DNA of 38,436 nucleotides, taken from Tannerella sp. Its GTDB lineage: Bacteria > Bacteroidota > Bacteroidia > Bacteroidales > Tannerellaceae. The position numbers and the translations under genes were made by a program. How positions within the stretch are numbered: position 1 is the first letter of the stretch; every line of letters begins with the position of its first letter. Location of the stretch: assembly GCA_031285685.1 (NCBI GenBank), contig JAITVS010000378.1, positions 1-38,436 of the forward strand, given 5' to 3'. Shown here one piece after another: positions 4,716 through 37,256 of this stretch. The notes beneath the pieces were generated by a model that saw nothing but the letters and a program-made list of their open reading frames with translations, had not been told where the DNA came from and ran no database searches.

Positions 4716-4769
4716 ATGTACAAAAATATATTTTTAACACTAAGGTAATATAGAACTCACTCATTTGTT

Positions 4770-6361: not shown

Positions 6362-6425
6362 CGTTTTAAATTCTTTTACCGGAAAAATTTCTTTTGCCGG
6401 AAATATTCTCAATCATTCGTATTTT

Positions 6426-9038: not shown

Positions 9039-9098
9039 ACGATATTTATTTTCACTTTAAGGCTGAAATATATTCCCCGGTCCGTTCCGAGCCTATAC

Positions 9099-9124
9099 TT
9101 CCGCGGATTCAGGCAATCCCGGAA
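9099..9124. repeat. Imperfect inverted repeat between the regulator and GH2 genes
   Basis: Arms TTCCGCGGATT and AATCCCGGAA around a 5-base centre, pairing fully except for one bulged base. It lies in the 103-bp gap between the GntR stop and the GH2 start on the minus strand. It lacks a T-run after it, so it may act as an attenuator or RNA processing signal rather than a full terminator. No TAnnTTTG box was found in this gap, which suggests GH2 is read from the regulator promoter. Confidence 0.45.
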
Positions 9125-9141
9125 ATACAACCTTATGTCAT

Positions 9142-12836: not shown

Positions 12837-12871
12837 AATAAGACCAATTATCGCAACATACATTTATATTT

Positions 12872-16010: not shown

Positions 16011-16964
16011 ATGAAACAAAAAATTTTATTATTACTTCTTGCCGGCTTCATTTTATCAGCCTGCAATTCAAACAAAAAGGAAAATAACGCTCAGGAGGAA
16101 AAAGAGGTATGGATCTCCACTTCTTTCAGAGAGCCCGCCGGCGAAGGTTTGAAATTCATATACAGTTACGACGGTTACAAATGGGACAGCATTCCGGGCG
16201 TCTTTCTGAAACCGGAAACAGGAATACAGAAAGTAATGCGCGACCCCAGTATTGTTCAGGGACCGGACGGTACGTTCCATCTGGTATGGACCTGCAGTTG
16301 GAAACATGATCCGGGATTCGGGTATGCTTCATCCAAAGACCTGATAAACTGGTCGGAACAAAAATATATTCCGGTCATGGCTTTTGACACTACTACGGTA
16401 AACGTATGGGCGCCGGAACTTTTTTATGATGATGCAAGCGATGAATTTATCGTTGTCTGGGCATCTACGATCCCCTACAAATTCGATAAAGGAATCGAAG
16501 AAGAACTGAACAACCACCGCTTGTATTATACGAAAACCAAAGACTTCAACGACTTCACAAAAGCCGAGTTACTTTATGACCCGGGATACAGCTCGATCGA
16601 CGCGGTAATCGTTAAAAAAGGACCTTCCGATTATGTACTGATATTCAAGGACAATACCCGCCCGGAAAGAAATATCCTGGCGGCATTCGGCGAAACGGCC
16701 ACCGGTCCATACCACGACCCGGCGGAAAAATTTACGGAAAGCTTTACCGAAGGGCCATCCGTATTAAAAACAGACGATGAATGGTTAATTTATTACGATG
16801 CCTATCGTAATTATACATATGAAGCCGTATCAACAAAAGACTTCACAACATATACCGGTATAAATGATAAAATATCCGTACCGAAAGGGCATAAACACGG
16901 AACCATCTTTAAAGCGAAAGAAAGTATTTTAAAGGGTATTATCGCAGAAAAAAGCAAACTATGA
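16011..16964 (+). CDS. GH43-type lipoprotein (arabinofuranosidase-like)
   Basis: 317 residues. The lipobox LSAC places the lipidated Cys at residue 18, followed by an Asn/Lys/Glu-rich tether, so it is membrane anchored. The rest is a five-bladed beta-propeller with the three GH43 acidic residues in standard contexts: base Asp78 in MRDPSIV, pKa modulator Asp197 in SSIDAVI, and acid Glu248 in TEGPSV. Other family marks are WAPELFYD and repeated SKDLINW-like blades. GH43 acts on alpha-L-arabinofuranosides, beta-xylosides or galactans; an RG-II-associated GH43 arabinofuranosidase is known in B. thetaiotaomicron, which fits here. The stop codon overlaps the start of the next gene by 4 bp (ATGA), showing translational coupling. 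Confidence 0.85.
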   Translation: MKQKILLLLLAGFILSACNSNKKENNAQEEKEVWISTSFREPAGEGLKFIYSYDGYKWDSIPGVFLKPETGIQKVMRDPSIVQGPDGTFHLVWTCSWKHDPGFGYASSKDLINWSEQKYIPVMAFDTTTVNVWAPELFYDDASDEFIVVWASTIPYKFDKGIEEELNNHRLYYTKTKDFNDFTKAELLYDPGYSSIDAVIVKKGPSDYVLIFKDNTRPERNILAAFGETATGPYHDPAEKFTESFTEGPSVLKTDDEWLIYYDAYRNYTYEAVSTKDFTTYTGINDKISVPKGHKHGTIFKAKESILKGIIAEKSKL

Positions 16965-19900
16965 AACAACTATTTTTCTTATCAACCATCAGCTTACTGG
17001 GCTTATTACCGGTAAATGCACAAGACGGTATTCATTATACCGGAAAAACCTTGTCGAATGTAGATTACCACCACGGACAGCTAAGCCCGGCAGTCGGTAC
17101 GCACAACATACAGACATTCCGCGCCAACCGCGAGTATCCTGAAAAAGCCGAAGGACTTGGGTGGACCTACAACCACGCGCCGATGCTCGCATACCGAAAC
17201 GGCACGTTTTATCTTGAATATCTGAACAATCCTGTCGGTGAACATATCCCTCCGGGAAGAACGATGCTGCAAACATCAAAAGACGGATATAACTGGTCCG
17301 AACCCGTAACACTATTTCCGGAATATAAGGTACCGGATGGTTTTACCAAACCTGATCATCCCGGAGTGGCCAAAGATTTAATGGCGGTAACACACCAACG
17401 GGTTGGTTTTTTTACCTCTTCGAAAGGACGGCTACTGGCTATTACATACTATGGTATATGTCTTGATAAGAAAGACAGTCCGAACGATGGAAACGGCATA
17501 GGGCGTGTTGTTCGCGAAATCAAAGAAGACGGATCATTCGGTGAAATCTATTTTGTCCGCTACAGCCATGCTTTCAATGAAAAAAATACGGATTACAAGT
17601 TCTACAAAAGAAGTAAGGACAAAGGCTTTGTGGCGGCGTGTGATGAGCTGTTGGCCAATCCTTTATACATGATGCAGTGGGTAGAAGAAGCCGACCGGAA
17701 CGATCCGCTTATTCCATGGGATAGAATGTATAAGGCATTCAGTTACTACCATTTGCCTGACGGACGTGTGGCCGCATTGTGGAAACATGCGCTGACGGCA
17801 ATCAGCGAAGACGGCGGAAAAACCTGGCCGGAAGGGGCTTATCGGGCGCCGGGCTTTGTAAACAGCAATGCAAAAATATGGGGCCAGAAAATATCCGACG
17901 GCAATTATGCGACGGTCTATAATCCATCGGAATTTCGCTGGCCATTAGCTGTTTCCACCAGTGAGGACGGATTGGAATATACCACGCTTTACCTCATACA
18001 TGGCGACATGACGGACCAGCGGTATGGCGGGAACTACAAGTCAAGAGGTCCGCAGTACGTAAGAGGTATCCTTGAAAATAACGGAACGCCCCCCGACAGT
18101 AATTTGTGGGTTACTTACAGCGTCAACAAAGAAGATATTTGGATATCCCGCATTCCCGTGCCCGTAACGGATAAAGTATTGGAACACGCGGATGAAACAT
18201 TCGACCGGATGCCGGAAGGCAAAGAGCTGGATATGTGGAACATTTACAGTCCATTGTGGGCGCCCGTAAAAATTGAAAGACGCGACGACGGAAAACGCTG
18301 GTTATCATTGAAAGACAAAGATTTGTTCGACTATGCGAAAGCCGAAAGAGTTATTCCGGAATCCAAAACGCTGAACGCGTCGTTTTCCGTTTTACCGCTA
18401 CAGAATGATAAAGGTAATTTGCAGATTGAACTTCAAAATGCAAAAGGACAGACTTGTACGCGAATTCGTTTTGACAGCGACGGAATCATCCGGATCAAAG
18501 TCGGATACCGCGACAATGAGCTGGCGCCTTATGATAAAAACACGGCTTACAATATTTCCCTTTCTGCTTCCGTAGCAACAAGAAGTCTGACACTGCGTAT
18601 CAACGACAAAGAGCTATCAACCAAACTGTTTTTTAATCCGGTGGAATCCATCACCCGTGTCGTTTTCCGCACAGGCAACCTGCCATTGGAACCAACGGCA
18701 AATACGCCAACCGACCGCATGACTGATCTGGAAAAAGCCGGCGAAGAAGCGCCTCTTGCGGAATTTTTCATATCGCATCTCAAAACATCCGATCCTTCAA
18801 CGACTGCCGCCTTGTTAAATGCTGACGATTTCAAACACCATGTCGATTATTTCAACACGATGGAAGATGAAAACATCATACAGGCCATATCCAACGCGCA
18901 ATCATGGGAATGGATAAAACAGAACGTTCCCTTATTTGAATGTCCGCAGGCGAATTTCGAACAAATGTATTATTTCAGATGGTGGTCGTTGAGAAAACAC
19001 ATCAAAGAGACACCTATTGGATACGTTATGACGGAATTTCTGGTCGATCGGGGATATGCGGATAAATACAACATGATCGCATGCGCGCTGGGACATCATA
19101 TCTATGAAGGACGCTGGCTACGCAATCAGGATTATGTTAATCAGTATGTACATGCCTGGTTCAGGGGAAATGACGGAAAACCGATGGAAAGGCTACGCAA
19201 ATTCAGCAGCTGGACACCGAATGCACTGTATGAAAAATACCTGGTTGACGGAGACAGGGAATTCCTGCTCAACATGTTTCCCGATCTGGAATGGGAATAT
19301 GCCGGATGGGAAAGTGACCACCGTCTGCCGGGCGGATTATACTGGCAGGAAGACGTACGCGACGGCATGGAGGAAAGCGTCAGCGGCGGACGGAAAAAAC
19401 AATACGCCCGTCCGACCATCAACTCGTATATGTACGGCAATGCAAAAGCATTGGCAGCCATCGCACGGATAAAAGGCGATGAGCAAACAGCCCAAAAATA
19501 CGACGAAAAAGCCGCTGAAATAAAGAAACTTGTACAATCACAATTATGGAACGCCGACAGTTTATTTTTCGAAACATTGAGAGAACCCGGACAATTTGCT
19601 CAGGCACGTGAAGCGATCGGATATATTCCGTGGTACTTCAACCTGCCGGACGAAAGAAATGACTATACGGAGGCATGGAAACAGGTCACGGATGAGAACG
19701 GTTTCCTGGCCCCGTACGGATTGACAACGGCCGAACGCCGGCATCCCGAATTCCGCTCGCACGGATGTTGCAACTGCGAATGGGATGGCGCGATATGGCC
19801 TTTTGCTTCTTCGCAGACGCTTACAGCCATGGCAAACTTCATCAACAACTACAAACAGGATATGATCAATGACAGCATCTACTTCCTCCACATGGAATTA

Positions 19901-20278
19901 TACGTAGAAAGCCAGTATCATCGCGGAAGACCGTATATCGGCGAATACGCGGACGAAGTAACCGGTTATTGGCTGAAAGGCGATCAGGAACGGAGCCGTT
20001 ATTACAATCACTCAACATTCAACGACCTGATTATTTCAGGCTTAATCGGCCTCAGGCCCCGACCGGATAATGTATTGGAAATATCCCCTCTGATTCCGCA
20101 GAATCAATGGGACTGGTTCTGTCTTGATAACGTACCGTACAAAGGAAAGATCGTAACGGTTATCTGGGATAAAACCGGAGATAAATACAAGCGGGGAAAA
20201 GGTTTCCAGATTCTGCTTGACGGACGTGTCGTCGCAAAATCCGACTCTCTGCAACGTATAACGTATAACATGCAATAA
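16961..20278 (+). CDS. GH143-GH142 two-domain enzyme (Dha hydrolase plus beta-L-arabinofuranosidase)
   Basis: 1105 residues; signal peptide about 1-21. Residues about 25-420 form a sialidase-like beta-propeller with Asp-box-like blades (SKDGYNW, SEDGGKTW, STSEDGLEY). Residues about 430-640 form a beta-sandwich. Residues about 650-1095 form an (alpha/alpha)6 toroid with RKFSSWTPNALYEKYLVDGDREFL, then GGLYWQEDVRDGMEESVSGG and INSYMYGNAKALA. This order and length match B. thetaiotaomicron BT1020, whose N-terminal half (GH143) releases 3-deoxy-D-lyxo-heptulosaric acid (Dha) and C-terminal half (GH142) removes beta-L-arabinofuranose from RG-II chain D. Both activities are inferred from architecture; catalytic residues were not identified. 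It overlaps GH43 by 4 bp and precedes GH78 by 8 bp. It is the strongest RG-II marker in the window. Confidence 0.82.
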   Translation: MKQLFFLSTISLLGLLPVNAQDGIHYTGKTLSNVDYHHGQLSPAVGTHNIQTFRANREYPEKAEGLGWTYNHAPMLAYRNGTFYLEYLNNPVGEHIPPGRTMLQTSKDGYNWSEPVTLFPEYKVPDGFTKPDHPGVAKDLMAVTHQRVGFFTSSKGRLLAITYYGICLDKKDSPNDGNGIGRVVREIKEDGSFGEIYFVRYSHAFNEKNTDYKFYKRSKDKGFVAACDELLANPLYMMQWVEEADRNDPLIPWDRMYKAFSYYHLPDGRVAALWKHALTAISEDGGKTWPEGAYRAPGFVNSNAKIWGQKISDGNYATVYNPSEFRWPLAVSTSEDGLEYTTLYLIHGDMTDQRYGGNYKSRGPQYVRGILENNGTPPDSNLWVTYSVNKEDIWISRIPVPVTDKVLEHADETFDRMPEGKELDMWNIYSPLWAPVKIERRDDGKRWLSLKDKDLFDYAKAERVIPESKTLNASFSVLPLQNDKGNLQIELQNAKGQTCTRIRFDSDGIIRIKVGYRDNELAPYDKNTAYNISLSASVATRSLTLRINDKELSTKLFFNPVESITRVVFRTGNLPLEPTANTPTDRMTDLEKAGEEAPLAEFFISHLKTSDPSTTAALLNADDFKHHVDYFNTMEDENIIQAISNAQSWEWIKQNVPLFECPQANFEQMYYFRWWSLRKHIKETPIGYVMTEFLVDRGYADKYNMIACALGHHIYEGRWLRNQDYVNQYVHAWFRGNDGKPMERLRKFSSWTPNALYEKYLVDGDREFLLNMFPDLEWEYAGWESDHRLPGGLYWQEDVRDGMEESVSGGRKKQYARPTINSYMYGNAKALAAIARIKGDEQTAQKYDEKAAEIKKLVQSQLWNADSLFFETLREPGQFAQAREAIGYIPWYFNLPDERNDYTEAWKQVTDENGFLAPYGLTTAERRHPEFRSHGCCNCEWDGAIWPFASSQTLTAMANFINNYKQDMINDSIYFLHMELYVESQYHRGRPYIGEYADEVTGYWLKGDQERSRYYNHSTFNDLIISGLIGLRPRPDNVLEISPLIPQNQWDWFCLDNVPYKGKIVTVIWDKTGDKYKRGKGFQILLDGRVVAKSDSLQRITYNMQ

Positions 20279-23048: not shown

Positions 23049-25073
23049 ATGAAAGGCACTATTATTTCAATTTTACTTTGCGTAGCCGCCTTAACGATAA
23101 ACGCTCAGACAAAAGGACTGACAAACACGTTAAGAAGTCCGCATGCGAAAATGCATAGCGTCAATATACACGATGTGACGTGGACAAAAGGCTTTTGGGC
23201 CGAACGGTTTGATGTCTGCAAAGACACGATGCTGTTGAATATGTGGCGTATTTTTGACGATCCGGAGCTAAGCCACGCCTATCACAACTTCGAAATTGCA
23301 GCAGGTTACAAAAGCGGCGAACATAAAGACCCGCCGTTTTTCGATGGCGATATGTACAAATGGCTGGAAGGCGTAGCCGCCGTATATGCCATCACAAAAA
23401 ATCCGGAATTGGATAAACTGATGGATAAATTTATAGAAACCGTCCGCCTCTCACAACGCGAAGACGGATATATCCATACGGCAACCATTGTGGCCGATAA
23501 AAATAATCCCGGGGCCAAGAAAGGATTTGAAGAAAGACTTCATTTCGAAACATACAACATGGGGCATCTGATGACTGCAGCATGCGTACATTATCGTGTA
23601 ACCGGAAAGAAAAGTTTTCTGGATATAGCCGTAAAAACCACGGACTTTCTGTATAATTTTTACAAAACAGCGACAAATGAACTGGCACGAAGCGCCATCT
23701 GTCCGTCTCACTACATGGGCGTTGTGGAGATGTACCGCACCACACGCGACCCCAAATACCTCGAACTATCCAAAAGCCTGATCGATATCCGGGGTATGGT
23801 GGAAAACGGAACGGACGATAATCAGGACCGTATTCCGTTCCGTGAACAGAAAACAGCCATGGGCCATGCGGTAAGATCCAACTATCTGTATGCAGGCGTA
23901 GCCGATGTTTATATGGAAACGGGAGATAAAACATTGCTGGAATGTCTTCATCCTATCTGGGACGATGTGACATACAGGAAAATGTATATCACCGGCGGAT
24001 GCGGTGCGTTATATGACGGCACATCACCCGACGGCACGGCTTACGAACCGGATAGCATTCAGAAAGTACACCAATCATACGGCCGAGCCTATCAGTTACC
24101 TCAGGAAACCGCACATAACGAAACGTGCGCCAATATCGGGAATATGTTATGGAATTTCCGGATGATGCAATTATCGGAAAATCCGAAGTATGCCGACATC
24201 ATCGAACTGACCTACTACAACAGCATCCTTTCGGGGATCAGCCTCGACGGCAAGAAATACCTCTACACCAACCCGTTGAGCCAGACAGCCAACTTCCCCT
24301 ACTCTTTGCGTTGGGGAGATTTCCGCCAGGAATACATCACCTGCTTCTGTTGTCCTCCCAATACGGTCCGTACGATAGCTGAGGTCAGCAACTACGCTTA
24401 CGCGATCTCGGACAAAGGTATTTATTGTAATATCTACGGAAGCAATAACCTCAACACCAAAGATACCGACGGAAAGGACATCAGCATCACGCAGGAAACG
24501 GATTATCCATGGGACGGAACAATCAAACTGACGATAAATAAAACGCTGAAAAAAGACCTCTCCCTATTCCTGAGAATACCCGGATGGAGTAATGATGCGA
24601 CAATTACGGTAAACGGAAGCGACGCCGGCATAAATATTTCCTCAGGCGCTTACGCGGAAGTGAAAAGAGTTTGGAAAAAGGGAGATGAAATCGTACTCAG
24701 CATTCCTTTGCGTCCACGCCTGATCGAATCGAACCCGTTGGTTGAAGAAACACGCAATCAGGTCGCAGTCATGTACGGCCCAATGGTTTATTGTGTAGAA
24801 TCAATTGATCTACCGGATAATACTCCGATCTACGACATCGTCATACCCGGGGATATCCAACTTCAACCGAAAGCGGTCAACATCGAAGGGAATAAAATAA
24901 TCGCACTACAAGGCATTGCCAAAAAGAAATCAAACAGCGGATGGGACAAACAACTATATCGTGAGATTCATCCCGAAACAAAAAACATAAACATCTCGTT
25001 TATACCCTATTACGCATGGAACAATCGCGGAAATCACGATATGTCGGTATGGCTCAGATTAGGAAACAGATAA
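23049..25073 (+). CDS. GH127 (DUF1680) glycosidase, candidate acerate or beta-L-arabinofuranose hydrolase
   Basis: 674 residues; signal peptide about 1-20. The (alpha/alpha)6 catalytic domain (about 35-450) carries the zinc-thiolate set: Glu358 and Cys360 in HNETC, and Cys434-Cys435 in CFCCPPNTVRT. One of the paired Cys is the nucleophile in this family. Two beta-sandwich domains follow. Known GH127 activities are beta-L-arabinofuranosidase and, in the RG-II system, aceric-acid hydrolase (BT1003), so either is possible. The position sixteen residues before Glu358, where I recall the acid/base Glu of the Bifidobacterium enzyme, is Gln342 here; see findings. An ATG at 23044 is in another frame; 23049 is used. 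It is the last intact gene before the SusC remnant. Confidence 0.9.
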   Translation: MKGTIISILLCVAALTINAQTKGLTNTLRSPHAKMHSVNIHDVTWTKGFWAERFDVCKDTMLLNMWRIFDDPELSHAYHNFEIAAGYKSGEHKDPPFFDGDMYKWLEGVAAVYAITKNPELDKLMDKFIETVRLSQREDGYIHTATIVADKNNPGAKKGFEERLHFETYNMGHLMTAACVHYRVTGKKSFLDIAVKTTDFLYNFYKTATNELARSAICPSHYMGVVEMYRTTRDPKYLELSKSLIDIRGMVENGTDDNQDRIPFREQKTAMGHAVRSNYLYAGVADVYMETGDKTLLECLHPIWDDVTYRKMYITGGCGALYDGTSPDGTAYEPDSIQKVHQSYGRAYQLPQETAHNETCANIGNMLWNFRMMQLSENPKYADIIELTYYNSILSGISLDGKKYLYTNPLSQTANFPYSLRWGDFRQEYITCFCCPPNTVRTIAEVSNYAYAISDKGIYCNIYGSNNLNTKDTDGKDISITQETDYPWDGTIKLTINKTLKKDLSLFLRIPGWSNDATITVNGSDAGINISSGAYAEVKRVWKKGDEIVLSIPLRPRLIESNPLVEETRNQVAVMYGPMVYCVESIDLPDNTPIYDIVIPGDIQLQPKAVNIEGNKIIALQGIAKKKSNSGWDKQLYREIHPETKNINISFIPYYAWNNRGNHDMSVWLRLGNR

Positions 25074-25502: not shown

Positions 25503-26399
25503 ATGAAAAATAAATACAAAGGCGTCGTTATCCCTATGGTAACCCCTGTAAAAAAAGACGGATCGGTTAATTCGGAAGCTGTAAAACGTATCATCGCAAG
25601 CTTTGTGGCAAACGAAGCTTCTCCTCTACTCATGGGTACTACCGGCGAAGGCAACTCAGTCGCACCCGATCAGGCGTTGATTTTAGTAAAAGCCGCAGTC
25701 GAAGAAGCCGCCGGAAAGATAACAATCTATGCAGGACTCAGTGGCTGCAGCATACGTCAGCACATACAAGCTGCCAGTGATTTCCGTAAATTGGGCGTGG
25801 ATGTCATCGTTGCAACTCTGCCAAGTTATTACATGCTGACAGACGAACAAATGTTTCTTTATTACAAAACACTGGCAGACAATATTTCCGCTCCGTTGAT
25901 GCTCTATAATATTAAAGCGACCACACATATGTCGATACCATTGGATGTAGTCGAAAAACTCAGCAAACATCCGAATATCGTCGGATTAAAGGATTCGGAA
26001 CGGGATGTCGAACGGATGAAAGAATGCATCGGGATCGCTTCAAACGAAGCGTCTTTTTCCTACTTTTCCGGATGGGCGGCACAATCAGCCAACAGCCTGA
26101 CACTCGGTGCCGACGGTATTGTTCCGAGTACCGGAAATTTTGTTCCGGAAATGTTCCGGGAATTATATTCGGCTGCGATAAACGGAAACATCGCACACGC
26201 CAACCATTTACAGAATGAAACAGACAGAATCGCTAAAATATACCAGGAAGGACGTACATTGGGACAATCCCTGGCTGCCCTCAAAATCATGATGAAAACG
26301 AAAAATCTTTGCGATACATATATGCTCCCTCCGTTAACCGGATTATCGCCGGAAGAAACGGAAGAAATCATCGCAAAGACAAAAAACATCAATAACTGA
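25503..26399 (+). CDS. DapA/NanA-family class I aldolase, copy 2 (candidate Dha aldolase)
   Basis: 298 residues, cytoplasmic. All catalytic marks of the DHDPS/NAL family are present: GTTGEG at 45-50, Tyr135 in LYNI and Schiff-base Lys163 in IVGLKDSE. It differs widely from copy 1 in the substrate-side loops (CSIRQHIQ here against TSVHESIK), so the two are unlikely to be recent duplicates and may act on different substrates. It heads a five-gene cassette with symporter, Fe-type dehydrogenase, PdxA2-like dehydrogenase and DUF1537 kinase. Proposed reaction: cleavage of imported 3-deoxy-D-lyxo-heptulosarate into pyruvate and a four-carbon aldehyde acid. This is inference from context. Lysine biosynthesis is unlikely since no other lysine gene is near. 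Confidence 0.9.
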   Translation: MKNKYKGVVIPMVTPVKKDGSVNSEAVKRIIASFVANEASPLLMGTTGEGNSVAPDQALILVKAAVEEAAGKITIYAGLSGCSIRQHIQAASDFRKLGVDVIVATLPSYYMLTDEQMFLYYKTLADNISAPLMLYNIKATTHMSIPLDVVEKLSKHPNIVGLKDSERDVERMKECIGIASNEASFSYFSGWAAQSANSLTLGADGIVPSTGNFVPEMFRELYSAAINGNIAHANHLQNETDRIAKIYQEGRTLGQSLAALKIMMKTKNLCDTYMLPPLTGLSPEETEEIIAKTKNINN

Positions 26400-26427
26400 A
26401 AATCATCTAAACCAAACTAAAACAACC

Positions 26428-27987
26428 ATGAATGAATCTTTAATCCACTGGATCGATTACATCATCGTCTTCTTGTCTGTGGCATTAGCCATCGGCATGG
26501 GATTATATTTTACCAACAGACAAAAAAGTTCCGATAAATATTTCACCGGAGGAAGAAATATTCCGGCCTGGGCTGTCGGCATATCCATTTTTGCGACACT
26601 GATCAGTAGTGTTACTTTTCTGGCATATCCGGGGGCGGCTTATGCCGGCAACTGGATCTTGCTCGTACAAGGCTTAATGGTTCCGGTCGTACTCCTGGCT
26701 ATGATCGGCATTATCGTTCCTCTCTTCCGCAAAGTAGTGAAAATAAGCACGTATGAATATTTTGAAAAACGATTTGGTTTTTTTGCCCGTCTATACGGCT
26801 CACTGGCATTCGGATTAGGGCATTTCTCTAAAATGGGAACCGTCTTCTATCTCGTAAGTCTCGCCATCTCAGCATTCATGGGTATTGATATCTTTTCCAT
26901 CATCATCGTATTGGGCATCGCAATCATTCTGCTGACTTTCCTGGGAGGAATGGAAGCGGTGATATGGATGGATGTGATTCAGGGACTTCTGCTAATCGTC
27001 GGTGGCTTGATCTGCGCCGTCATGCTCCTGTTTCTTCCTGAAGGAGGACCGTCTACCGTATTCTCCGTTGCAAAAGACTTTAATAAAATCAGCTTCGGTC
27101 CTTACAACTGGGATTTTAAACAACTCACATTCATCGTCATGGCGCTGAACGGTGTTTTTTATGCAATACAAAAATACGGAACCGACCAGACGATCGTGCA
27201 ACGCTACCTGACGGCCAAAGATGATAAAAGCGCAAAGAAAGCGGCATACATCGGGGTATTCCTGAGTGTTCCGATCTGGACGCTGTTTATGTTTATAGGA
27301 ACAGGACTATTTGTCTTTTACCAGACTGGAGGAGGCATCTTGCCCGAAGACATAAAAGCAGATGCCGTTTTCCCACATTTCATTGCCGCAGAAATACCTG
27401 TTGGACTGACCGGACTGATTGTCGCGGCGTTAGTCGCCGCTGCCATATCCAGTCTCGATTCGGATCTCAACAGTCTGGCGGCCATCACGGTCGAAGATTA
27501 TTATGTGAGACTCAAACCAAAAAGTACCGATAAGCAACGTCTTCGTATGGGAAGAATTGTGGTCGCCATATCGGGAATTGCAGCGATCTCCGTCGCCTTA
27601 CTCTATGCCCATTGGGGAGGAGAAGGCGTACTCGGCGTCATTTTCGGCCTATATGCAATTTTTTCAGCCGGAATTGTAGGTCTTTTCCTGCTTGGCCTTC
27701 TCAGCCGGCGGGCAAACAAACAAGGACTATACATTGGTATAGCCGCATGTGTCCTGTTCACGGCTTACGCACTACTGACTTCGACTCCCTATTCTATCGG
27801 AGAAGAAAAACGACTTCTGCTTGATATGGGAAACCTGAATTTCACGCACCACAAATATATGCTGGGGGTCTATAGCCATGTTATTGTCTTTGTGGTTGGT
27901 TACGTAGCCAGTCTTTTCTTCAAAACACCACTGGCCGACAAAGAACTGACTATTTACGGTTATCTTGAAAACAAAAAGAAAAAATAA
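26428..27987 (+). CDS. Sodium:solute symporter (SSS family), copy 2
   Basis: 519 residues with about 13 hydrophobic helices; inner membrane. Landmarks parallel copy 1: SSDKYFTGGRNIPAWAVG after helix 1, SSVTFLAYPGAAYAGNW, TFLGGMEAVIWMDVIQG, and AAISSLDSDLNSLAAI in the later sodium-site helix. It starts 28 bp after the aldolase gene and ends 8 bp before the dehydrogenase gene, so it is part of one transcript. The SSS family includes sialic-acid carriers, and pairing with a NAL-like aldolase suggests import of a related keto-acid sugar. Dha is the favoured substrate because the downstream enzymes fit its C4 product. There is a charged C-terminal tail (ENKKKK). Confidence 0.9.
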   Translation: MNESLIHWIDYIIVFLSVALAIGMGLYFTNRQKSSDKYFTGGRNIPAWAVGISIFATLISSVTFLAYPGAAYAGNWILLVQGLMVPVVLLAMIGIIVPLFRKVVKISTYEYFEKRFGFFARLYGSLAFGLGHFSKMGTVFYLVSLAISAFMGIDIFSIIIVLGIAIILLTFLGGMEAVIWMDVIQGLLLIVGGLICAVMLLFLPEGGPSTVFSVAKDFNKISFGPYNWDFKQLTFIVMALNGVFYAIQKYGTDQTIVQRYLTAKDDKSAKKAAYIGVFLSVPIWTLFMFIGTGLFVFYQTGGGILPEDIKADAVFPHFIAAEIPVGLTGLIVAALVAAAISSLDSDLNSLAAITVEDYYVRLKPKSTDKQRLRMGRIVVAISGIAAISVALLYAHWGGEGVLGVIFGLYAIFSAGIVGLFLLGLLSRRANKQGLYIGIAACVLFTAYALLTSTPYSIGEEKRLLLDMGNLNFTHHKYMLGVYSHVIVFVVGYVASLFFKTPLADKELTIYGYLENKKKK

Positions 27988-27995
27988 ATTATCGT

Positions 27996-29141
27996 ATGAA
28001 ATCCATTACCTTACTACAACCTCCCAAAATCGTTTTCGGAACGGGATGCCTCTCACAATTTGCAGAGGATTACCTCAAACTGGGATTAAAAAAACTGTTT
28101 ATTCTTACAGCTCCACCGATCCGACCATTGATAGAGCCGGTCATAAATACGTTGGAAAACAACGGAACGGATGTCTGTATCTACGACAAGATTATTCAGG
28201 AGCCGACCGTTGACGATTTCAATCATATTCTGACAACAGCGCGTAACTTTCAGGCTGACAGCATTGCCGGTATCGGAGGAGGCAGCGTACTTGATGTCGC
28301 CAAATTAGTGGCGGTGCTTCTCGAAAGCGATCAACAGGTTGAAGACCTGTTCGGTACCGGGCTGGTAAAATCGCGTAATCGCTGGATCGCCTGTATACCG
28401 ACAACAGCAGGAACCGGAAGCGAAGTATCTCCGAATGCAATCCTGCTGAATGAAAAGGATAAACTCAAAAAAGGGATCGTCAGCCCATATCTTGTAGCCG
28501 ACGCTGTCTATGCCGACCCACAGCTGACGGCCACCGTTCCGCCTAAGATAACTGCAGAAACGGGAATAGACGCGCTGACACATTGTATCGAAGCTTACAC
28601 AAATAAACACGTCCATCCGGTCATCGATCTGTATGCACTGGAAGGCATCAGGCTTATCGCGTCTCATCTTCTGAACGCCGTACAAAACGGGAACAATATG
28701 GAAGCGCGCGAAGCGTTATTATTAGGAAGTTTGTATGGCGGAATGTGTCTGGGTCCGGTCAACACGGCTGCCGTTCATGCGCTCTCCTACCCGCTTGGCG
28801 GAGAGTTTCATATTTCTCACGGGTTGGCAAACTCGATCCTGTTACCCCCGGTTATGCGGTTTAACGTAAGCGCCAATGTCGAAAAATATGCGCAAGTCGC
28901 ACTCGCTTGCGGTGTTACAGCGGGAGCCAACAAATTGGAAACAGCCGAAAAAGGGGTTCGCTTTATCGAAAAACTGGCGGCCGATTGCGGAATCCCGTCC
29001 AAACTATCGGCCATCGGCATTCCGCGTGAGACCATCGAAAATCTGGCAAAAGCAGGTATCGGCGTCACACGCCTGCTGAATAACAACCCACGTGAAGTAA
29101 CTTACGAAGACGCTAAAAATATATACGAAAGCTTATTTTAA
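27996..29141 (+). CDS. Iron-type alcohol dehydrogenase / aldehyde reductase
   Basis: 381 residues, cytoplasmic, full length for group III (iron-containing) alcohol dehydrogenases. The nucleotide-binding motif GIGGGSVLDVAK is at 92-103. The metal ligands are all present: Asp192 and His196 in GIDALTHCIEA, His261 in HALSYPLGG, and His275 in HISHGLAN. These enzymes interconvert aldehydes and primary alcohols with NAD(P)H; lactaldehyde reductase is a close functional relative. In this cassette, I propose that it reduces the aldehyde end of the C4 acid formed by the aldolase, giving D-threonate. A lactaldehyde reductase role in rhamnose or fucose use is the main alternative, but no other gene of those pathways is in the cassette. 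The next gene starts 1 bp after its stop. Confidence 0.9.
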   Translation: MKSITLLQPPKIVFGTGCLSQFAEDYLKLGLKKLFILTAPPIRPLIEPVINTLENNGTDVCIYDKIIQEPTVDDFNHILTTARNFQADSIAGIGGGSVLDVAKLVAVLLESDQQVEDLFGTGLVKSRNRWIACIPTTAGTGSEVSPNAILLNEKDKLKKGIVSPYLVADAVYADPQLTATVPPKITAETGIDALTHCIEAYTNKHVHPVIDLYALEGIRLIASHLLNAVQNGNNMEAREALLLGSLYGGMCLGPVNTAAVHALSYPLGGEFHISHGLANSILLPPVMRFNVSANVEKYAQVALACGVTAGANKLETAEKGVRFIEKLAADCGIPSKLSAIGIPRETIENLAKAGIGVTRLLNNNPREVTYEDAKNIYESLF

Positions 29142-29142
29142 A

Positions 29143-30186
29143 ATGCAAATGATACCGACTATAGCAATCACAATGGGCGACCCTGCAGGGATAGGCCCTG
29201 AAATCGTAGCCAAAGCGCTCAGTCACGAAGAGATATATCACAAATGCAATCCTTTGGTTTGCGGCGATGCCGGTGTAATGAAACAAATCGTAGAACATGA
29301 GGGCTTCCCACTTCGTATAAATCCGGTCAATGATGTATCACAAGCGGAATTTAAACCGGGGGTAATCGACGTATATGATCTAAAGTGTGTCAGTCTCAAT
29401 GATTTTCGCTTCGGAGAAGTTTCTGCACAGGCCGGTAATGCCGCATTCGTTTCCATACGGAAAGCAATCGAACTGGCGATGAATGGTGAAGTCGATGCAA
29501 CCGTAACCGCACCGATCAACAAAACGGCGCTAAATCTGGCCGGACACCATTTTTCAGGTCATACCGAGATTTATGCCCATTTCACCGATACGAAAAAATA
29601 TGCCATGCTGCTTGCAGACGAATTTTTACGGGTCATTCATGTATCAACTCATGTTTCATTAAGGGAAGCGTGCGATCTGGTAAAAAAAGACCGCATCATT
29701 GCGGTAACCCAATTATTAGACGACGCATGCAGGCAATTCGGGATCAAAAATCCGAAAATAGGCATTGCCGGACTGAACCCCCATTCAGGCGATAACGGTT
29801 TATTCGGCTGGGAAGAAGAAAAAGAAATCATCCCTGCGATAAACGAACTTGCGGAAAAAGGTTTCCGCGTAGAAGGTCCTGTGCCGCCCGACACCTTATT
29901 TGCCAAAGCCAAATGCGGATTCTATGATGGTTGCGTGGCGATGTATCATGACCAGGGACATATCCCGTTCAAAGTGGTCGGTTTCAACTGGAATATGGAA
30001 ACAAAAAAAATGGAAAGCGTGCAAGGTGTGAATATCACATTGGGATTACCCATCATCCGCGTGTCGGTTGACCACGGAACAGCATTCGATGTGGCAGGAA
30101 AAAGTGTAGCAAGTCCCGACGCACTGTTACTATCCATCGATTATGCCGCCCGTATGGCCGAGAACAAAATGAAACAAAACGTATAA
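29143..30186 (+). CDS. pdxA2: PdxA2-like 4-phospho-tetronate dehydrogenase (decarboxylating)
   Basis: 347 residues, cytoplasmic. It has the PdxA fold signatures: ITMGDPAGIGPEI at 9-21, metal ligands His170 in HVSTHVSL, His214 in NPHSGD, and His269 in YHDQGH, and VDHGTAFDVAG near the C-terminus. PdxA itself makes vitamin B6, but PdxA2 members encoded next to DUF1537 kinases oxidise D-threonate or D-erythronate 4-phosphate, and the keto acid loses CO2 to give dihydroxyacetone phosphate. The neighbouring kinase gene (57 bp downstream) makes this reading much more likely than B6 synthesis. It follows the dehydrogenase with 1 bp between stop and start; the ATG at 29149 is an equally good start. 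The assignment to D-threonate 4-phosphate is inferred. Confidence 0.88.
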   Translation: MQMIPTIAITMGDPAGIGPEIVAKALSHEEIYHKCNPLVCGDAGVMKQIVEHEGFPLRINPVNDVSQAEFKPGVIDVYDLKCVSLNDFRFGEVSAQAGNAAFVSIRKAIELAMNGEVDATVTAPINKTALNLAGHHFSGHTEIYAHFTDTKKYAMLLADEFLRVIHVSTHVSLREACDLVKKDRIIAVTQLLDDACRQFGIKNPKIGIAGLNPHSGDNGLFGWEEEKEIIPAINELAEKGFRVEGPVPPDTLFAKAKCGFYDGCVAMYHDQGHIPFKVVGFNWNMETKKMESVQGVNITLGLPIIRVSVDHGTAFDVAGKSVASPDALLLSIDYAARMAENKMKQNV

Positions 30187-30243
30187 TGACCGGTCTTATC
30201 CGGAACCTATGCAAGTATCGTATTACTTAATATAAAAAATCAA

Positions 30244-31587
30244 ATGCTTGCCGTTATTGCCGACGATATTACCGGAGCCGCCGAAATGGCGGGAATTGCT
30301 TTTCGCTTCGGATTAAGCGTATGTCTGGAAATATATTCCGACAAACGACTTCCGGGCTTTCGAAATGCGTCATCCGAAAACAATGTCCTTTCGGATGAAA
30401 CATTCGCCGGACAAATAAATAAAACACAACATTCTTCTACTCCGGAACGATTATCCGATTGCGATATGTTGGTTTTAGCGACCAACACCCGTTCTCTTTC
30501 GGAAAATACAGCCGTAGAGCAAACCGGAAAAATAATGGAATTATTAAAAAATGCCGGCTGTCCTTTAATTTATAAAAAAACAGACTCGGTTCTCAGGGGA
30601 CATATCGTTCCGGAACTTCAGGTCTTGATCGAAAAAGGAGGATACGAAAAAGCATTGCTCATCGCTCAAAATCCTTCCCGGGGACGCATCATCCGCAATG
30701 GCATTTATAGAGTGAACGAAACACCGCTTTCCGAAACCGACTTTGCACACGATCCGGAATTTCCCGCATACACTTCCGATGTAAAAAAACGGTTGGGAAA
30801 CATTTCTGTCATCCGGTCGTTCAAAGGTACAGATGGCTTATCCGGCGCAAACAACAACATAAACAACGGCTCTTGCATAAACAAAGACACCGGCAAAGTA
30901 AGCCATGATGCCGGCACGAGTAGAAACAACGACAACGCCAATGACAACCATACGAACAAAATATTCGTCGCCAACGCAGAAAGCCGGGATGAGATTCGTC
31001 AAATCCTGAATGATGTCCCGCTGAAAACATTATTAGCCGGCGGAGCCGACCTCTTTACGGAATATCTCCTTTCCACAGGAAACCGGGAAAGAAAGACGAA
31101 CCCGTTTAAAGGATTCGACGACCGAAAAGCAGTTGTTGTCTGCGGAAGCACAGCGACACATAAACTGACCGACTATGAATATTTTAAACGAAATACCGTC
31201 GCATTCTGTAATATGCCACAAGATGTATTCGAAGGAGCATCACCCCGAAAATGGATTGAACAAATAATTAAACAATATGAATCCGGTTCATCCGTCGTCA
31301 TAACAATCAATCACCCACCCCAAAAAGGAAAAGATGTTGCTTTACGACTAAAAAATATAATGACGGAAGCGACAAACACGCTTCTTCAAATCAAACCGCC
31401 TCAGGAGCTGGTTATCGAAGGCGGAGCGACCGCTTTTTCTATTTTGGAATCGATAAATTGGTATGACTTCCGGGTAACAAACGAAATAGCTCCCGGCATC
31501 GTCAGAATGTCTCTCCGCCTAAATCCTCAAACATATATCACCCTTAAGCCGGGAAGCTACCCGTGGGAAAAAACTCTTTTTTGTTAA
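30244..31587 (+). CDS. DUF1537 four-carbon acid-sugar kinase (D-threonate kinase-like)
   Basis: 447 residues, cytoplasmic. The N-terminal substrate-binding domain opens with IADDITGAAEMAG (5-17) and has YKKTDSVLRGHIVPEL (110-125). The C-terminal nucleotide-binding domain has VVVCGSTATHK, then LVIEGGATAFSIL and EIAPGIVRM. This is the full two-domain DUF1537 layout, a family shown to phosphorylate D-threonate, L-threonate, D-erythronate and related acids. Residues about 200-239, between the two domains, are a low-complexity Asn-rich linker (ANNNINNGSCIN, NNDNANDNHTNK), and residues 40-70 carry another polar insertion; both are unusual. It is the last gene of the cassette. D-threonate is the predicted substrate from stereochemistry; see findings. 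Confidence 0.9.
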   Translation: MLAVIADDITGAAEMAGIAFRFGLSVCLEIYSDKRLPGFRNASSENNVLSDETFAGQINKTQHSSTPERLSDCDMLVLATNTRSLSENTAVEQTGKIMELLKNAGCPLIYKKTDSVLRGHIVPELQVLIEKGGYEKALLIAQNPSRGRIIRNGIYRVNETPLSETDFAHDPEFPAYTSDVKKRLGNISVIRSFKGTDGLSGANNNINNGSCINKDTGKVSHDAGTSRNNDNANDNHTNKIFVANAESRDEIRQILNDVPLKTLLAGGADLFTEYLLSTGNRERKTNPFKGFDDRKAVVVCGSTATHKLTDYEYFKRNTVAFCNMPQDVFEGASPRKWIEQIIKQYESGSSVVITINHPPQKGKDVALRLKNIMTEATNTLLQIKPPQELVIEGGATAFSILESINWYDFRVTNEIAPGIVRMSLRLNPQTYITLKPGSYPWEKTLFC

Positions 31588-34577: not shown

Positions 34578-37256
34578 ATGAAACACAAACACCTATTTTT
34601 TATTTTCAACATTTTTTTGTTGATCTCCTGCTCGAAGGAGAAAATAAATATTTTCGTGGAAGAAAACGATTCCGCACGTATTGATTTTGGCGTGGAAAAA
34701 CTGAAAGCGGCGCTCGAAAATGCCGAATATGAAGTCTATCTCATCACATCCGCAGAAAACGTACAAGGTTTGACGATAAGTGTTGGCATAAACACAGACA
34801 AATCGCTCGAAAAGGAAGGATTCCGTATCATATCCGAAAACAACGTGACAAAAATATCCGGAAACGACGAATCCGGTGCTTTGTATGGATGTATCGAGTT
34901 AAGCCAAATCATTAAAAAAGAGAAAAAGCTCCCGAAAAAACTGAACATCGCGGAAAAACCGGAGATGGTGCTTCGCGGAACATGTTTGGGAATACAATTA
35001 CCTTATTATCTGCCGGGCAGAACGGTTTACGAATATCCATATACACCGGAAGTATTTCCATGGTTTTATGATAAAGACTTATGGGTCGAATATCTGGATA
35101 TGCTGGTCGAAAACAAAATGAACTCATTATACCTCTGGAATGGGCACCCGTTTGCTTCGTTAGTCAAACTGGAAGATTATCCTTATGCGGTTGAAGTGGA
35201 TGACGAAACTTTTCGTAAAAACGAAGAAATGTTCGCATTTCTCACAGAAGAAGCAGACAAAAGAGGCATCTGGATCATTCAGATGTTTTATAATATCCTT
35301 GTATCCAAACCTTTTGCCGAATATCACAACATCAAAACACAGGACCGACAACGCCCAATAACGCCGCTACTGGCTGATTACACCCGAAAATCAATTGCGG
35401 CATTTATAGAAAAATACCCGAATGTCGGATTACTTGTCTGTTTGGGAGAAGCGATGGACACTTATGAAGATGATGTTGAATGGTTTACAAAAACAATCAT
35501 CCCGGGTGTACAAGACGGATTGAAAACGCTGGGCATAGAAAAAGAGCCGCCGATTGTACTTCGTGCACACGATACGGATGCCAAAATGGTCATTGACGCT
35601 TCTCTACCCCTTTATAAAAACTTATATACAATGCATAAATACAATGGCGAATCACTCACAACTTACCAGCCGCGCGGTCCATGGACAAAAACACATCAGG
35701 ACCTCAGCGCATTAGGCTCTGTGCATATCTCCAATGTCCATATACTCGCCAACTTGGAGCCGTTCCGTTACGGTTCACCGGACTTCATACAGAAAACCGT
35801 ACATGCCATGCACGACATACATGGTGCAAATGCATTGCATTTGTTCCCGCAGGCGTCTTACTGGGACTGGCCCTATTCGGCTGATAAAACAGAACCCCGT
35901 TTAAAAGAAATAGAGCGGGATTGGATATGGTATGAAGCATGGGCCAGGTATGCCTGGAATGTAAACAGGGACAGAGACGATGAAATAAAATACTGGTCGG
36001 ATTTACTCGGAGAAACATACGGATGCGGAGAAAACGGCAAATTTATCCTCGAAGCATATGAACAGTCCGGTGAAATAGCGCCCAAACTGCTACGAAAATT
36101 CGGTATTACCGAAGGTAACAGACAAACATTACTTTTAGGAATGTTCCTCAGTCAGTTAGTCAATCCTGCTAAATGGAGAGTCTATCCGGGTTTTCATGAA
36201 TCATGCGGACCGGAAGGCGAACTGCTTATCGAATATATGAATAAAGAATGGAACAAACAACCTCATGTCGGAGAAACACCTCCGCAACTCATATCCGAAG
36301 CCGTTAACCACGGCAATGCGGCTGTTGCCGCAATAGAAGCGGCAACTCCTTTTGTGAAGAAAAACAACGATGAATTCAATCGCCTCAAAAATGATATGTA
36401 CTGCTATCAGGCTTTTGCCGATTTCTTCGCCGAAAAAGTCAAAGCTGCCATGTCGATTCTGAAATATACACACTCCAATGATATTTCCGATCTGGAAAAT
36501 GCAATTCCGCATGTAGAAAAAAGCCTCGAATACTATAAGCAGCTTGTTGATTTAACAAAAGATACATACCTGTACGCAAACAGTATGCAAACCGCTCAAC
36601 GCCGCATACCAATCGGGGGTGACGACGGAAACAACAAAACATGGGAAGAATTATTAGTTCATTATGAAACAGAATTTGCCAATCTTAAAAAGAACGTTGA
36701 TTTCCTGAAAAAAAACAACGAAGGAGACAATCAATTTTTTGAGGTTTTAACACCGGTAGACATTAAATTAGAAAATATAAACGCACCACGTTATCAGATA
36801 AAAAAAGGCGAAAAAATATTTTCCGACAGTGAATTCATCATTCGTGACTTTTCGGATGAACTGAAAAATATGCATCCGGTACGTTTCAACCTGAATGAAC
36901 AGGTAAACAACGGAACAACACTCTCCTTCGAGGCCAGACAGCCAGTAAGCCTCCTGGTAGGCTATGTAAACAGCGAACGTAAAGAATACGCCAAAGCGCC
37001 GACTCTTGAAACCGACGCCAGTGCAAACCAATACGGGCAAGGCGATGTTAAAATCGTAAATGCGCTGGATATCCCCGACAGAGGTTCTGTAAATATTCAT
37101 GTATATACGTTCGAAGCCGGTAAACATACGTTAAACCTCGGCAAAGGCGCACTTATTGTATTCGGTTTCATTGATGCGGACCAACAAATAAAATCTCACA
37201 ATGCCGGTTTCGGTGGAAATGATCCGTCAAGCCGTATAGATTGGCTGTTTTATTAG
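34578..37256 (+). CDS. GH138-like alpha-galacturonidase, lipoprotein
   Basis: 892 residues. The lipobox LISC puts the lipidated Cys at residue 18. Residues about 22-125 resemble the N-terminal alpha/beta domain of GH67, GH20 and GH115 enzymes (GFRIISENN, ALYGCIELSQI). The TIM barrel follows (about 130-440: LRGTCLGIQLPYYLPGR, WVEYLDMLVENKMNSLYLW, HDTDAKMVID, HLFPQASYWDWPYS), then a helical region and a C-terminal beta-sandwich. Catalytic candidates are Glu291 in CLGEAMD and Glu358 in YNGESLT, 67 residues apart, which agrees with my recollection of the catalytic pair of GH138. GH138 removes a galacturonic acid from RG-II chain A. It has its own promoter and operator. If not GH138, it is another member of the alpha-uronidase-like barrel group. 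Confidence 0.75.
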   Translation: MKHKHLFFIFNIFLLISCSKEKINIFVEENDSARIDFGVEKLKAALENAEYEVYLITSAENVQGLTISVGINTDKSLEKEGFRIISENNVTKISGNDESGALYGCIELSQIIKKEKKLPKKLNIAEKPEMVLRGTCLGIQLPYYLPGRTVYEYPYTPEVFPWFYDKDLWVEYLDMLVENKMNSLYLWNGHPFASLVKLEDYPYAVEVDDETFRKNEEMFAFLTEEADKRGIWIIQMFYNILVSKPFAEYHNIKTQDRQRPITPLLADYTRKSIAAFIEKYPNVGLLVCLGEAMDTYEDDVEWFTKTIIPGVQDGLKTLGIEKEPPIVLRAHDTDAKMVIDASLPLYKNLYTMHKYNGESLTTYQPRGPWTKTHQDLSALGSVHISNVHILANLEPFRYGSPDFIQKTVHAMHDIHGANALHLFPQASYWDWPYSADKTEPRLKEIERDWIWYEAWARYAWNVNRDRDDEIKYWSDLLGETYGCGENGKFILEAYEQSGEIAPKLLRKFGITEGNRQTLLLGMFLSQLVNPAKWRVYPGFHESCGPEGELLIEYMNKEWNKQPHVGETPPQLISEAVNHGNAAVAAIEAATPFVKKNNDEFNRLKNDMYCYQAFADFFAEKVKAAMSILKYTHSNDISDLENAIPHVEKSLEYYKQLVDLTKDTYLYANSMQTAQRRIPIGGDDGNNKTWEELLVHYETEFANLKKNVDFLKKNNEGDNQFFEVLTPVDIKLENINAPRYQIKKGEKIFSDSEFIIRDFSDELKNMHPVRFNLNEQVNNGTTLSFEARQPVSLLVGYVNSERKEYAKAPTLETDASANQYGQGDVKIVNALDIPDRGSVNIHVYTFEAGKHTLNLGKGALIVFGFIDADQQIKSHNAGFGGNDPSSRIDWLFY

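What the first reader, a model, noticed from the sequence alone, without database searches (positions are those of the whole stretch)
25503..31587. Candidate catabolic pathway for Dha, the C7 keto-aldaric acid of rhamnogalacturonan II
Seen: an aldolase of the DapA/NanA family, SSS symporter, Fe-type dehydrogenase, PdxA2 and DUF1537 kinase in one tight cassette, 5 kb downstream of a GH143-GH142 gene whose family releases Dha. Known: DUF1537 kinases plus PdxA2 convert D-threonate to DHAP and CO2. Inference: aldol cleavage of 3-deoxy-D-lyxo-heptulosarate between C3 and C4 gives pyruvate and a C4 aldehyde acid. In Fischer terms Dha has OH left, left, right at C4, C5, C6; after reduction of C4 and renumbering from the old C7 carboxylate, the product has OH left at C2 and right at C3, which is D-threonate. 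So C7 would give pyruvate, DHAP and CO2, and the otherwise odd dehydrogenase gets a defined role. I know of no published Dha catabolic pathway.
Basis: partly seen in the sequence, partly recalled or inferred. Interest (0 to 1): 0.93.

Follow-up and report, generated by a model that had tools for sequence, protein, structure and literature searches.

The report
Operon for eating pectin sugar Dha
In a bacterial gene cluster for digesting the pectin rhamnogalacturonan II, five adjacent genes that recur beside relatives of the Dha-releasing enzyme are predicted to break the seven-carbon sugar acid Dha into pyruvate and the glycolysis intermediate DHAP, a use of Dha for which my literature searches found no described pathway.

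Summary
The cassette is real: five co-directional genes (25503-31587) encode a DHDPS/NAL-family aldolase, SSS symporter, Fe-type alcohol dehydrogenase, PdxA2-like dehydrogenase and DUF1537 kinase, 5.2 kb downstream of a GH143-GH142 gene in an RG-II locus. In 344 genomes of the order, all 10 genomes with the cassette carry GH143, against 8 of the other 334. Of 79 genomes reached through the aldolase, 75 carry GH143, and GH143 or GH142 lies within 10 kb in 9 of 80 loci, in Bacteroidales and Cytophagales. The stereochemistry holds: Dha minus pyruvate, reduced, is D-threonate. A related aldolase (3801-4715) sits in 4 of 16 genomes with fucose isomerase, as a Kdo aldolase would. Against: three distant genomes carry the aldolase without GH143, 18 of 21 GH143 genomes in a phylum sample lack it, and 9 of 57 loci lack the dehydrogenase. 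No enzyme has been assayed. I judge the Dha pathway likely, built from known enzyme families and apparently undescribed.

The parts
25503..26399 (+). ALD1: DHDPS/NAL-family pyruvate aldolase, predicted Dha aldolase (Dha -> pyruvate + D-threuronate)
26428..27987 (+). SSS1: sodium:solute symporter, predicted Dha importer
   Evidence: PF00474 148.1 bits, TIGR00813 228.8 over cut-off 184; present in 75 of 80 ALD1 loci
27996..29141 (+). Fe-type alcohol dehydrogenase, predicted D-threuronate reductase giving D-threonate
   Evidence: PF00465/PF25137; Asp192, His196, His261, His275 invariant in 27 rows; absent from 9 of 57 loci with enough flank
29143..30186 (+). PdxA2-like dehydrogenase, predicted D-threonate-4-phosphate oxidative decarboxylase (to DHAP + CO2)
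   Evidence: PF04166 349 bits; 292-306 bits to 4jqp, 2hi1, 6e85 versus 203 to 1ps7; second PdxA of the genome on C206 clusters apart
30244..31587 (+). DUF1537 four-carbon acid kinase, predicted D-threonate 4-kinase
16961..20278 (+). GH143-GH142 protein: predicted to release L-arabinofuranose and then Dha from RG-II chain D (source of the substrate)
   Evidence: PF24067 397.5 bits, PF22422 300 bits; activity of the B. thetaiotaomicron founding member from a passage of PMC6811678
3801..4715 (-). ALD2: second DHDPS-family aldolase, predicted Kdo aldolase (Kdo -> pyruvate + D-arabinose)
   Evidence: PF00701 199.8 bits; clade of 16 rows next to ALD1; in 4 of 16 genomes beside L-fucose isomerase
4904..6412 (-). 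SSS2: sodium:solute symporter paired with ALD2, predicted Kdo importer
   Evidence: PF00474 140.8 bits; adjacent to ALD2 in other genomes
23049..25073 (+). aceric acid hydrolase (GH127), RG-II marker directly upstream
   Evidence: NF049879 1111.7 bits, cut-off 950
34578..37256 (+). alpha-D-galacturonidase (GH138-type, family number recalled), RG-II marker downstream
   Evidence: NF049878 1510.3 bits, cut-off 1300

Best explanation
Five co-directional genes at 25503-31587 encode a DapA-family aldolase, a sodium symporter, an iron-type alcohol dehydrogenase, a PdxA2-like dehydrogenase and a DUF1537 kinase, and together they are predicted to import and catabolise Dha: the aldolase would split it into pyruvate and D-threuronate, the dehydrogenase would reduce this to D-threonate, and the kinase and PdxA2 would turn D-threonate into DHAP and CO2. 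Shown here: gene content, order, conservation of the expected catalytic residues, and genomic association with GH143, the family that frees Dha. Inferred: each substrate, the direction of the dehydrogenase, and the importer's cargo. Dha would come from RG-II chain D after GH142 and GH143 act. The NADH spent on the reduction would be returned by PdxA2, so the route would be redox-neutral: C7 -> C3 (pyruvate) + C3 (DHAP) + CO2 for one ATP. The second aldolase-symporter pair in the same window would do the first step for the other keto acid of RG-II, Kdo, which has the same configuration at C4-C6 and would yield D-arabinose.
For: (1) Presence: in 344 genomes of the order, 10 genomes of 7 families have the cassette (kinase beside aldolase and/or PdxA) and all 10 have strong GH143; 8 of the other 334 do (Fisher p 8e-15; genomes not independent). 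Counting any PF07005 hit, chosen without looking at context: 11 of 16 versus 7 of 328 (p 7e-13). The six genomes whose only DUF1537 is of the other, higher-scoring type (or split) have strong GH143 in 1 of 6, and no aldolase was found beside it. (2) 75 of 79 genomes carrying ALD1 have PF24067. (3) GH143 or GH142 lies within 10 kb of ALD1 in 9 of 80 loci, including Echinicola pacifica and Anditalea andensis, order Cytophagales; directly upstream in L009 and one LacI-type gene away in L011. (4) All 10 cassette genomes have exactly two PdxA genes; the seven strong-GH143 genomes without any DUF1537 have one. (5) PdxA2-like rather than biosynthetic. (6) Stereochemistry gives D-threonate uniquely. 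(7) A pyruvate aldolase plus C4-acid enzymes implies a C7 keto acid with a terminal carboxylate; Dha is the C7 keto-aldarate of RG-II (passages of PMC12168206 and PMC6811678). (8) Kdo and apiose have their own gene sets: ALD2 with FucI in 4 of 16 genomes, and split transketolase, FGGY kinase and fucose-isomerase-like genes upstream of ALD1 in 5 of 80 loci and near it in G455 (reading as the apiose route is recalled).
Against: No activity is measured. Curated equivalog cut-offs for D-threonate kinase (92.7 of 450) and D-threonate-4-phosphate dehydrogenase (338 of 583) are not reached, and the PdxA passes the general TIGR00557 pdxA cut-off; its best PDB hit, 4jqp, is not named as a threonate enzyme. 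The kinase is only 29-39% identical to its counterparts in the nine other cassettes. In a phylum sample of 395, 3 of 6 genomes with strong ALD1 (family f135) lack GH143, and 18 of 21 strong GH143 genomes lack ALD1. In the order, 6 of 16 genomes whose GH143 is 46% or more identical to the window's lack the cassette. The dehydrogenase is missing in 9 of 57 loci with enough flank. In 6 of 10 cassette genomes of the order GH143 is on another contig; in G219, G111 and G211 fragmentation hardly explains this, and in G455 the two are about 650 kb apart. FucI, used here as a Kdo marker, also lies 1.4 kb beyond an ALD1 cassette in L109, near a further DHDPS-like gene.
Confidence: 0.8

Rival explanations
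1. The two aldolases are swapped: ALD1 would cleave Kdo and ALD2 (3801-4715) would cleave Dha.
For: Both are DHDPS-family, form neighbouring clades, and both occur in RG-II loci close to GH143. FucI lies near an ALD1 cassette in L109, and FucI was not seen near ALD2 in 12 of the 16 genomes looked at, the window's included.
Against: ALD2-SSS2 adjoins or lies close to L-fucose isomerase in G019, G111, G541 and G625 (1080 and 1077.5 bits for G019 and G541, cut-off 775), with an FGGY kinase and BNR protein in the latter two, fitting D-arabinose from Kdo. ALD1 sits with the C4-acid kinase and PdxA2, which have no role after Kdo cleavage.
Confidence: 0.05
2. The cassette serves another rare RG-II sugar, aceric acid or apiose, whose hydrolases are also in these loci.
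For: In the window the cassette directly follows the aceric acid hydrolase; RG-II genes tend to co-occur, so presence alone cannot separate the sugars.
Against: Neither is a 2-keto-3-deoxy acid suited to a pyruvate aldolase. No aceric acid hydrolase was found in the flanks of the 80 named loci, whereas GH143 or GH142 was in 9. An apiose-like gene set lies beside the complete cassette in L039, L040, L080, L082 and G455, so apiose does not need it. The cassette persists in two f135 genomes where GH143 was not found.
Confidence: 0.05
3. The cassette acts on some other C7 keto-aldarate or related keto acid, and the RG-II link is only frequent co-location.
For: Three f135 genomes with strong ALD1 and no PF24067 match; in L170 the cassette is beside a sulfatase, a BNR protein and a TonB receptor, not an evident RG-II locus.
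Against: 10 of 10 and 75 of 79 co-occurrence with GH143. Dha also occurs in prasinophyte scales and the Tetraselmis theca (PMC10762512 passages), which could feed these exceptions.
Confidence: 0.07
4. PdxA here is the vitamin B6 enzyme and the neighbours are unrelated.
For: TIGR00557 pdxA score 348 over the cut-off 290.
Against: The genome has another PdxA on C206 that clusters with the second PdxA of four other cassette genomes; the gene set is conserved across families.
Confidence: 0.01

Closest known systems
D-threonate catabolism by DUF1537 kinase DtnK and PdxA2 (Zhang et al. 2016, recalled; paper not held)
   Same: Same two enzyme families, predicted to act in the same order on the same C4 acid to give DHAP and CO2
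   Different: Here D-threonate would be made inside the cell from a C7 sugar by an aldolase and a dehydrogenase encoded in the same operon; the kinase and PdxA do not reach the curated D-threonate equivalog cut-offs
N-acetylneuraminate lyase / KDG aldolase branch of the DHDPS superfamily
   Same: Fold, Schiff-base lysine, tyrosine and GTTGE motif (roles recalled); pyruvate-type aldol cleavage of a 2-keto-3-deoxy acid
   Different: Separate clade from DapA; below the cut-off for each of the seven NCBIfam families listed; predicted substrate is a C7 keto-aldarate
Bacteroides thetaiotaomicron RG-II degradation loci (Ndeh et al. 2017, recalled; paper not held)
   Same: Same kinds of extracellular enzyme: GH143-GH142, aceric acid hydrolase, alpha-galacturonidase, GH78, GH28
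   Different: Adds an intracellular route for the freed Dha; the Bacteroides ihuae control genome has GH143 but no DUF1537
Galactarate/glucarate route via 5-keto-4-deoxyglucarate aldolase (recalled)
   Same: Keto-deoxy-aldarate split to pyruvate plus a semialdehyde acid that is then reduced and phosphorylated
   Different: Here one carbon longer; C4 instead of C3 acid; kinase and dehydrogenase families differ

Membership tests
DHDPS/NAL superfamily aldolase | PF00701 domain over the curated cut-off with Schiff-base Lys, Tyr and GTTGE | tested here: met
   173.3 bits, cut-off 22.1; G45-T46-T47-G48-E49, Y135, K163 invariant in 42 rows; residue roles recalled
DapA (HTPA synthase) proper | TIGR00674 equivalog cut-off 206 bits | tested here: not met
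   158 bits; a DapA-like copy of the same genome is on C150, 270.6 bits to PF00701
N-acetylneuraminate lyase | PRK04147 or nanA equivalog cut-off | tested here: not met
   114 of 281 and 98 of 382 bits
Dha aldolase | cleaves Dha to pyruvate | not testable with these tools
   no assay; no family model of that name was returned
DUF1537 four-carbon acid kinase | PF07005 plus PF17042 and DUF1537 fold | tested here: met
D-threonate kinase (NF047819) | equivalog cut-off 450 bits | tested here: not met
   92.7 bits
PdxA2 / D-threonate-4-phosphate dehydrogenase | closer to PdxA2 than to biosynthetic PdxA; extra paralog | tested here: met
   294 and 292 bits to 2hi1 and 6e85 versus 203 to 1ps7; the other paralog shows 179 and 167 versus 160; separate clades
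PdxA2 / D-threonate-4-phosphate dehydrogenase | NF002891 equivalog cut-off 583 bits | tested here: not met
   338 bits
Fe-dependent alcohol dehydrogenase | PF00465 domain and Asp/His/His/His metal site | tested here: met
   144.5 bits; D192, H196, H261, H275 invariant in 27 rows; ligand roles by analogy with FucO, recalled
GH143 Dha hydrolase (16961-20278) | BT_1020-like propeller fused to GH142-type domain | tested here: met
   PF24067 397.5, PF22422 300.1 bits
Kdo aldolase (3801-4715) | cleaves Kdo to pyruvate and D-arabinose | not testable with these tools
   context only: FucI beside relatives in 4 of 16 genomes, FGGY kinase and BNR proteins in some

The most novel reading that the evidence does not exclude
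This is the complete, redox-neutral catabolic pathway for Dha, and RG-II specialists of the phylum Bacteroidota run two related pyruvate aldolases that share out the polymer's two keto acids: ALD1 takes the C7 keto-aldarate Dha to pyruvate, DHAP and CO2, and ALD2 takes the C8 Kdo to pyruvate and D-arabinose. The same Dha cassette, without GH143, lets a distant bacterial family use Dha from the scales of green algae.
Probability: 0.45. Interest if true: 0.88.

Novelty: new variant of a known kind. Interest (0 to 1): 0.8.

Why it matters
Bacterial removal of Dha from RG-II is described (passage of PMC6811678), but I found no account of what bacteria then do with it. If the pathway holds, every step has a named candidate gene, a defined stereochemical product and a simple coupled assay. 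It would also give a genomic marker for which bacteria can use Dha rather than only release it (GH143 genomes without the cassette), give a function to genes that sources call only 'dihydrodipicolinate synthase family protein' or '4-hydroxy-tetrahydrodipicolinate synthase', and add a natural source of D-threonate.

Tried and rejected
Literature: ten searches in open-licence PMC papers only. Queries pairing PdxA, rhamnogalacturonan and aldolase, or D-threonate and pectin, gave zero papers; apulose with transketolase gave zero. No Dha catabolic pathway appeared in the listings or in the passages read from PMC6353982, PMC10762512, PMC12168206, PMC7939467 and PMC6811678; no paper was read whole, and most subscription papers are not held, so this is not proof of absence.

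Rejected: ALD1 as DapA or sialic lyase (below the cut-offs; clade apart from DapA). PdxA as B6 enzyme (second copy). ALD1 locus L050 as an alternative downstream pathway: the neighbours are a pectate lyase and restriction genes. Loci lacking an adjacent kinase: 15 of 18 such genomes have a DUF1537 elsewhere, 3 do not.

Led nowhere: Bacteroidetes-type promoter pattern (4 matches, 2.2 expected by chance), Rfam (0 matches at gathering scores), tRNA (0). The aldolase model was not used to map the substrate pocket because no coordinates were returned. The tree is midpoint-rooted and warns that long branches meet, so the ALD1-ALD2 sister relation is tentative. The split of PF07005 hits into two score classes was made after seeing the scores. 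A first count of cassette completeness (56 of 68) counted short loci only when the kinase had been seen, which favours completeness; I replaced it (48 of 57).

Rows dropped: alignments used thinned sets: 41 of 43 ALD1, 49 of 56 kinase, 26 of 30 dehydrogenase and 17 of 20 PdxA rows plus the window's.

Full report
WHAT IS THERE. The window is an RG-II locus: esterase-like, GH28, aldolase, symporter, GH2 and GntR genes on the minus strand (718-10125), then a pectate-lyase-like protein (weak, below cut-off), DUF3826, DUF6298, a BT_3657-N-like protein, GH143-GH142, GH78, aceric acid hydrolase, the five-gene cassette, a broken SusC/SusD pair and an alpha-D-galacturonidase.

ASSOCIATION WITH GH143. 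In 344 genomes drawn from the order, PF24067 is strong (E < 1e-80) in 18 and PF07005 is present in 16; 11 of these 16 have strong GH143, against 7 of the other 328 (p 7e-13). PF07005 hits fall in two score classes. The lower class (102-129 bits, 11 hits) lies in 10 genomes; neighbourhoods fetched for the nine besides the window's show the cassette in each, complete in G006, G064, G108, G111, G208, G211 and G219, and cut by contig ends in G282 (no dehydrogenase seen) and G300 (no symporter or aldolase seen). One of the 11 hits, a second copy in G211 on C27, is not in a cassette. All 10 genomes have strong GH143; of the other 334, 8 do (Fisher p 8e-15; genomes share ancestry, so this is not an exact probability; the 10 lie in 7 families). 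Two of those 8 (G022, G176) have only a more distant, about 40% identical GH143 relative. The higher class (162-176 bits, or split in G223) is the only one in 6 genomes, of which 1 (G176) has strong GH143 and 1 (G014) a weak match under the cut-off. GH143 and cassette share a contig within 20 kb in 4 of 10 (window, G064, G108, G208); in G006, G282 and G300 small contigs hide the answer; in G219, G111 and G211 they are on separate larger contigs.

NAMED GENOMES. These are mostly Prevotella-like, so the sample is skewed. Of the 57 loci with at least 8 kb downstream of ALD1, 48 have all five genes; the dehydrogenase is missing in 9, PdxA in 5, kinase in 5, symporter in 2. Six loci in all (L070, L076, L086, L089, L095, L114) have the other four genes without the dehydrogenase. 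Of 18 genomes whose ALD1 locus shows no kinase, 15 have PF07005 elsewhere. PF24067 is present in 75 of the 79 genomes; one hit is a fragment at a contig start (G380). The four misses (L077, L114, L116, L117) are MAGs, and L116 itself shows GH143-GH142 matches beside ALD1. GH143 or GH142 is within 10 kb of ALD1 in 9 of 80 loci, among them Echinicola pacifica DSM 19836 and Anditalea andensis, both order Cytophagales, where the order is GH143, GH78, ALD1, SSS1, FeADH, PdxA, DUF1537.

WHERE IT FAILS. In 395 genomes drawn from the phylum, ALD1 at 340 bits or more is in 6; GH143 is in 3 of these and not found in 3, all of family f135; and 18 of 21 strong GH143 genomes lack ALD1 (Fisher p 0.002). Two of the three exceptions have kinase, PdxA, dehydrogenase and aldolase together (L169, L170); the third has ALD1 alone in the stretch read (L171). 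L170 lies beside a sulfatase, a protein with FGE and BNR domains and a TonB receptor. A fourth genome of that family, G453, has the cassette 9 kb from a GH143 relative. Dha also occurs in prasinophyte scales and the Tetraselmis theca (PMC10762512, passages), a possible source; this is inference. So within the order the cassette predicts GH143 well, but GH143 does not predict the cassette: many GH143 carriers, including the Bacteroides ihuae control, either leave Dha or use another route.

WHY DHA. A pyruvate-type aldolase followed by enzymes for a C4 aldonate implies a C7 keto acid ending in a carboxylate. [quoted passage not shown] thetaiotaomicron GH143 enzyme releases it after arabinofuranose is removed (PMC6811678, passage). 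From D-lyxo (C4 left, C5 left, C6 right), cleavage between C3 and C4, reduction of C4 and renumbering from C7 give C2 left, C3 right: D-threonate, not the other three tetronates (the configurations of the tetronates are recalled). D-threonate kinase and PdxA2 chemistry is recalled from Zhang et al. 2016 (not held).

THE OTHER RG-II SUGARS HAVE THEIR OWN GENES. ALD2 (3801-4715) with SSS2 forms a clade beside ALD1 (16 rows 100/99; joint clade 98/93, tentative root). In G019 the collinear operon is GntR, GH2, FucI, SSS2, ALD2, GH28, esterase-like: the window's order plus L-fucose isomerase. In G111 FucI, SSS2 and ALD2 are consecutive. In G541 and G625 ALD2, SSS2, a BNR protein, an FGGY kinase and FucI lie in one run (the kinase of G541 is TIGR01315 at 680 bits). 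In G498 and G022 ALD2-SSS2 is beside a BNR protein. FucI was thus near ALD2 in 4 of 16 genomes looked at (13 of the order, 3 of the phylum sample; some flanks short) and not in the window. It also lies near an ALD1 cassette in L109, beside a further DHDPS-like gene. The pattern fits Kdo -> D-arabinose -> D-ribulose -> phosphate. In Prevotella-type loci (all four of transketolase halves, FGGY kinase and fucose-isomerase-like gene in 5 of 80; the isomerase-like gene in 8 of 80) and in G455, such genes adjoin the cassette; I read this as the D-apiose route from memory of Carter et al. 2018, which I could not check. Its presence argues that the cassette is not for apiose.

VERDICT. Observation confirmed; interpretation well supported by comparative genomics and stereochemistry, with all activities untested. 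The dehydrogenase is the least secure part.

Noticed in passing
window 3801-6412 (-): Second DHDPS-family aldolase plus SSS symporter; relatives lie with FucI in 4 of 16 genomes and with BNR proteins or an FGGY kinase in some, so predicted Kdo catabolism.
   Followed up: yes
window 31782-32879 and 32907-34240: The SusC ORF matches only model positions 633-981, with stops upstream in frame, and the SusD matches are split over two ORFs; a decayed pair or an assembly fault. Not mended.
   Followed up: partly
L039, L040, L073, L080, L082 upstream of ALD1; L173 (G455): Split transketolase, FGGY kinase and fucose-isomerase-like gene beside the Dha cassette, probably an apiose route.
   Followed up: partly
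L070, L076, L086, L089, L095, L114: ALD1-SSS1-PdxA-DUF1537 without the Fe-dehydrogenase; the reductase must be elsewhere or of another kind.
   Followed up: no
G133, G165, G315, G327 (order) and 18 genomes of the phylum sample: GH143 carriers with no ALD1; G133, G165, G315 and G327 have one DHDPS-family gene each, DapA-like, so the fate of Dha is open there.
   Followed up: partly
L169, L170 (family f135): Cassette without GH143, in L170 beside a sulfatase, BNR protein and TonB receptor: maybe algal Dha.
   Followed up: partly
L058 and L075: Records titled Paenibacillus sp. and Bacillota carry cassettes like those of Prevotella and probably are mislabelled MAGs.
   Followed up: no
G359, G370, G373, G378, G392, G401, G408: Two DUF1537 hits each; the role of the second is unknown.
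   Followed up: no
window 12186-15988: DUF3826 and DUF6298 genes recur near GH143 in several genomes and may be further RG-II functions.
   Followed up: no
L109:17201-20884: FucI and a further, distant DHDPS-like gene just beyond an ALD1 cassette on the opposite strand.
   Followed up: partly
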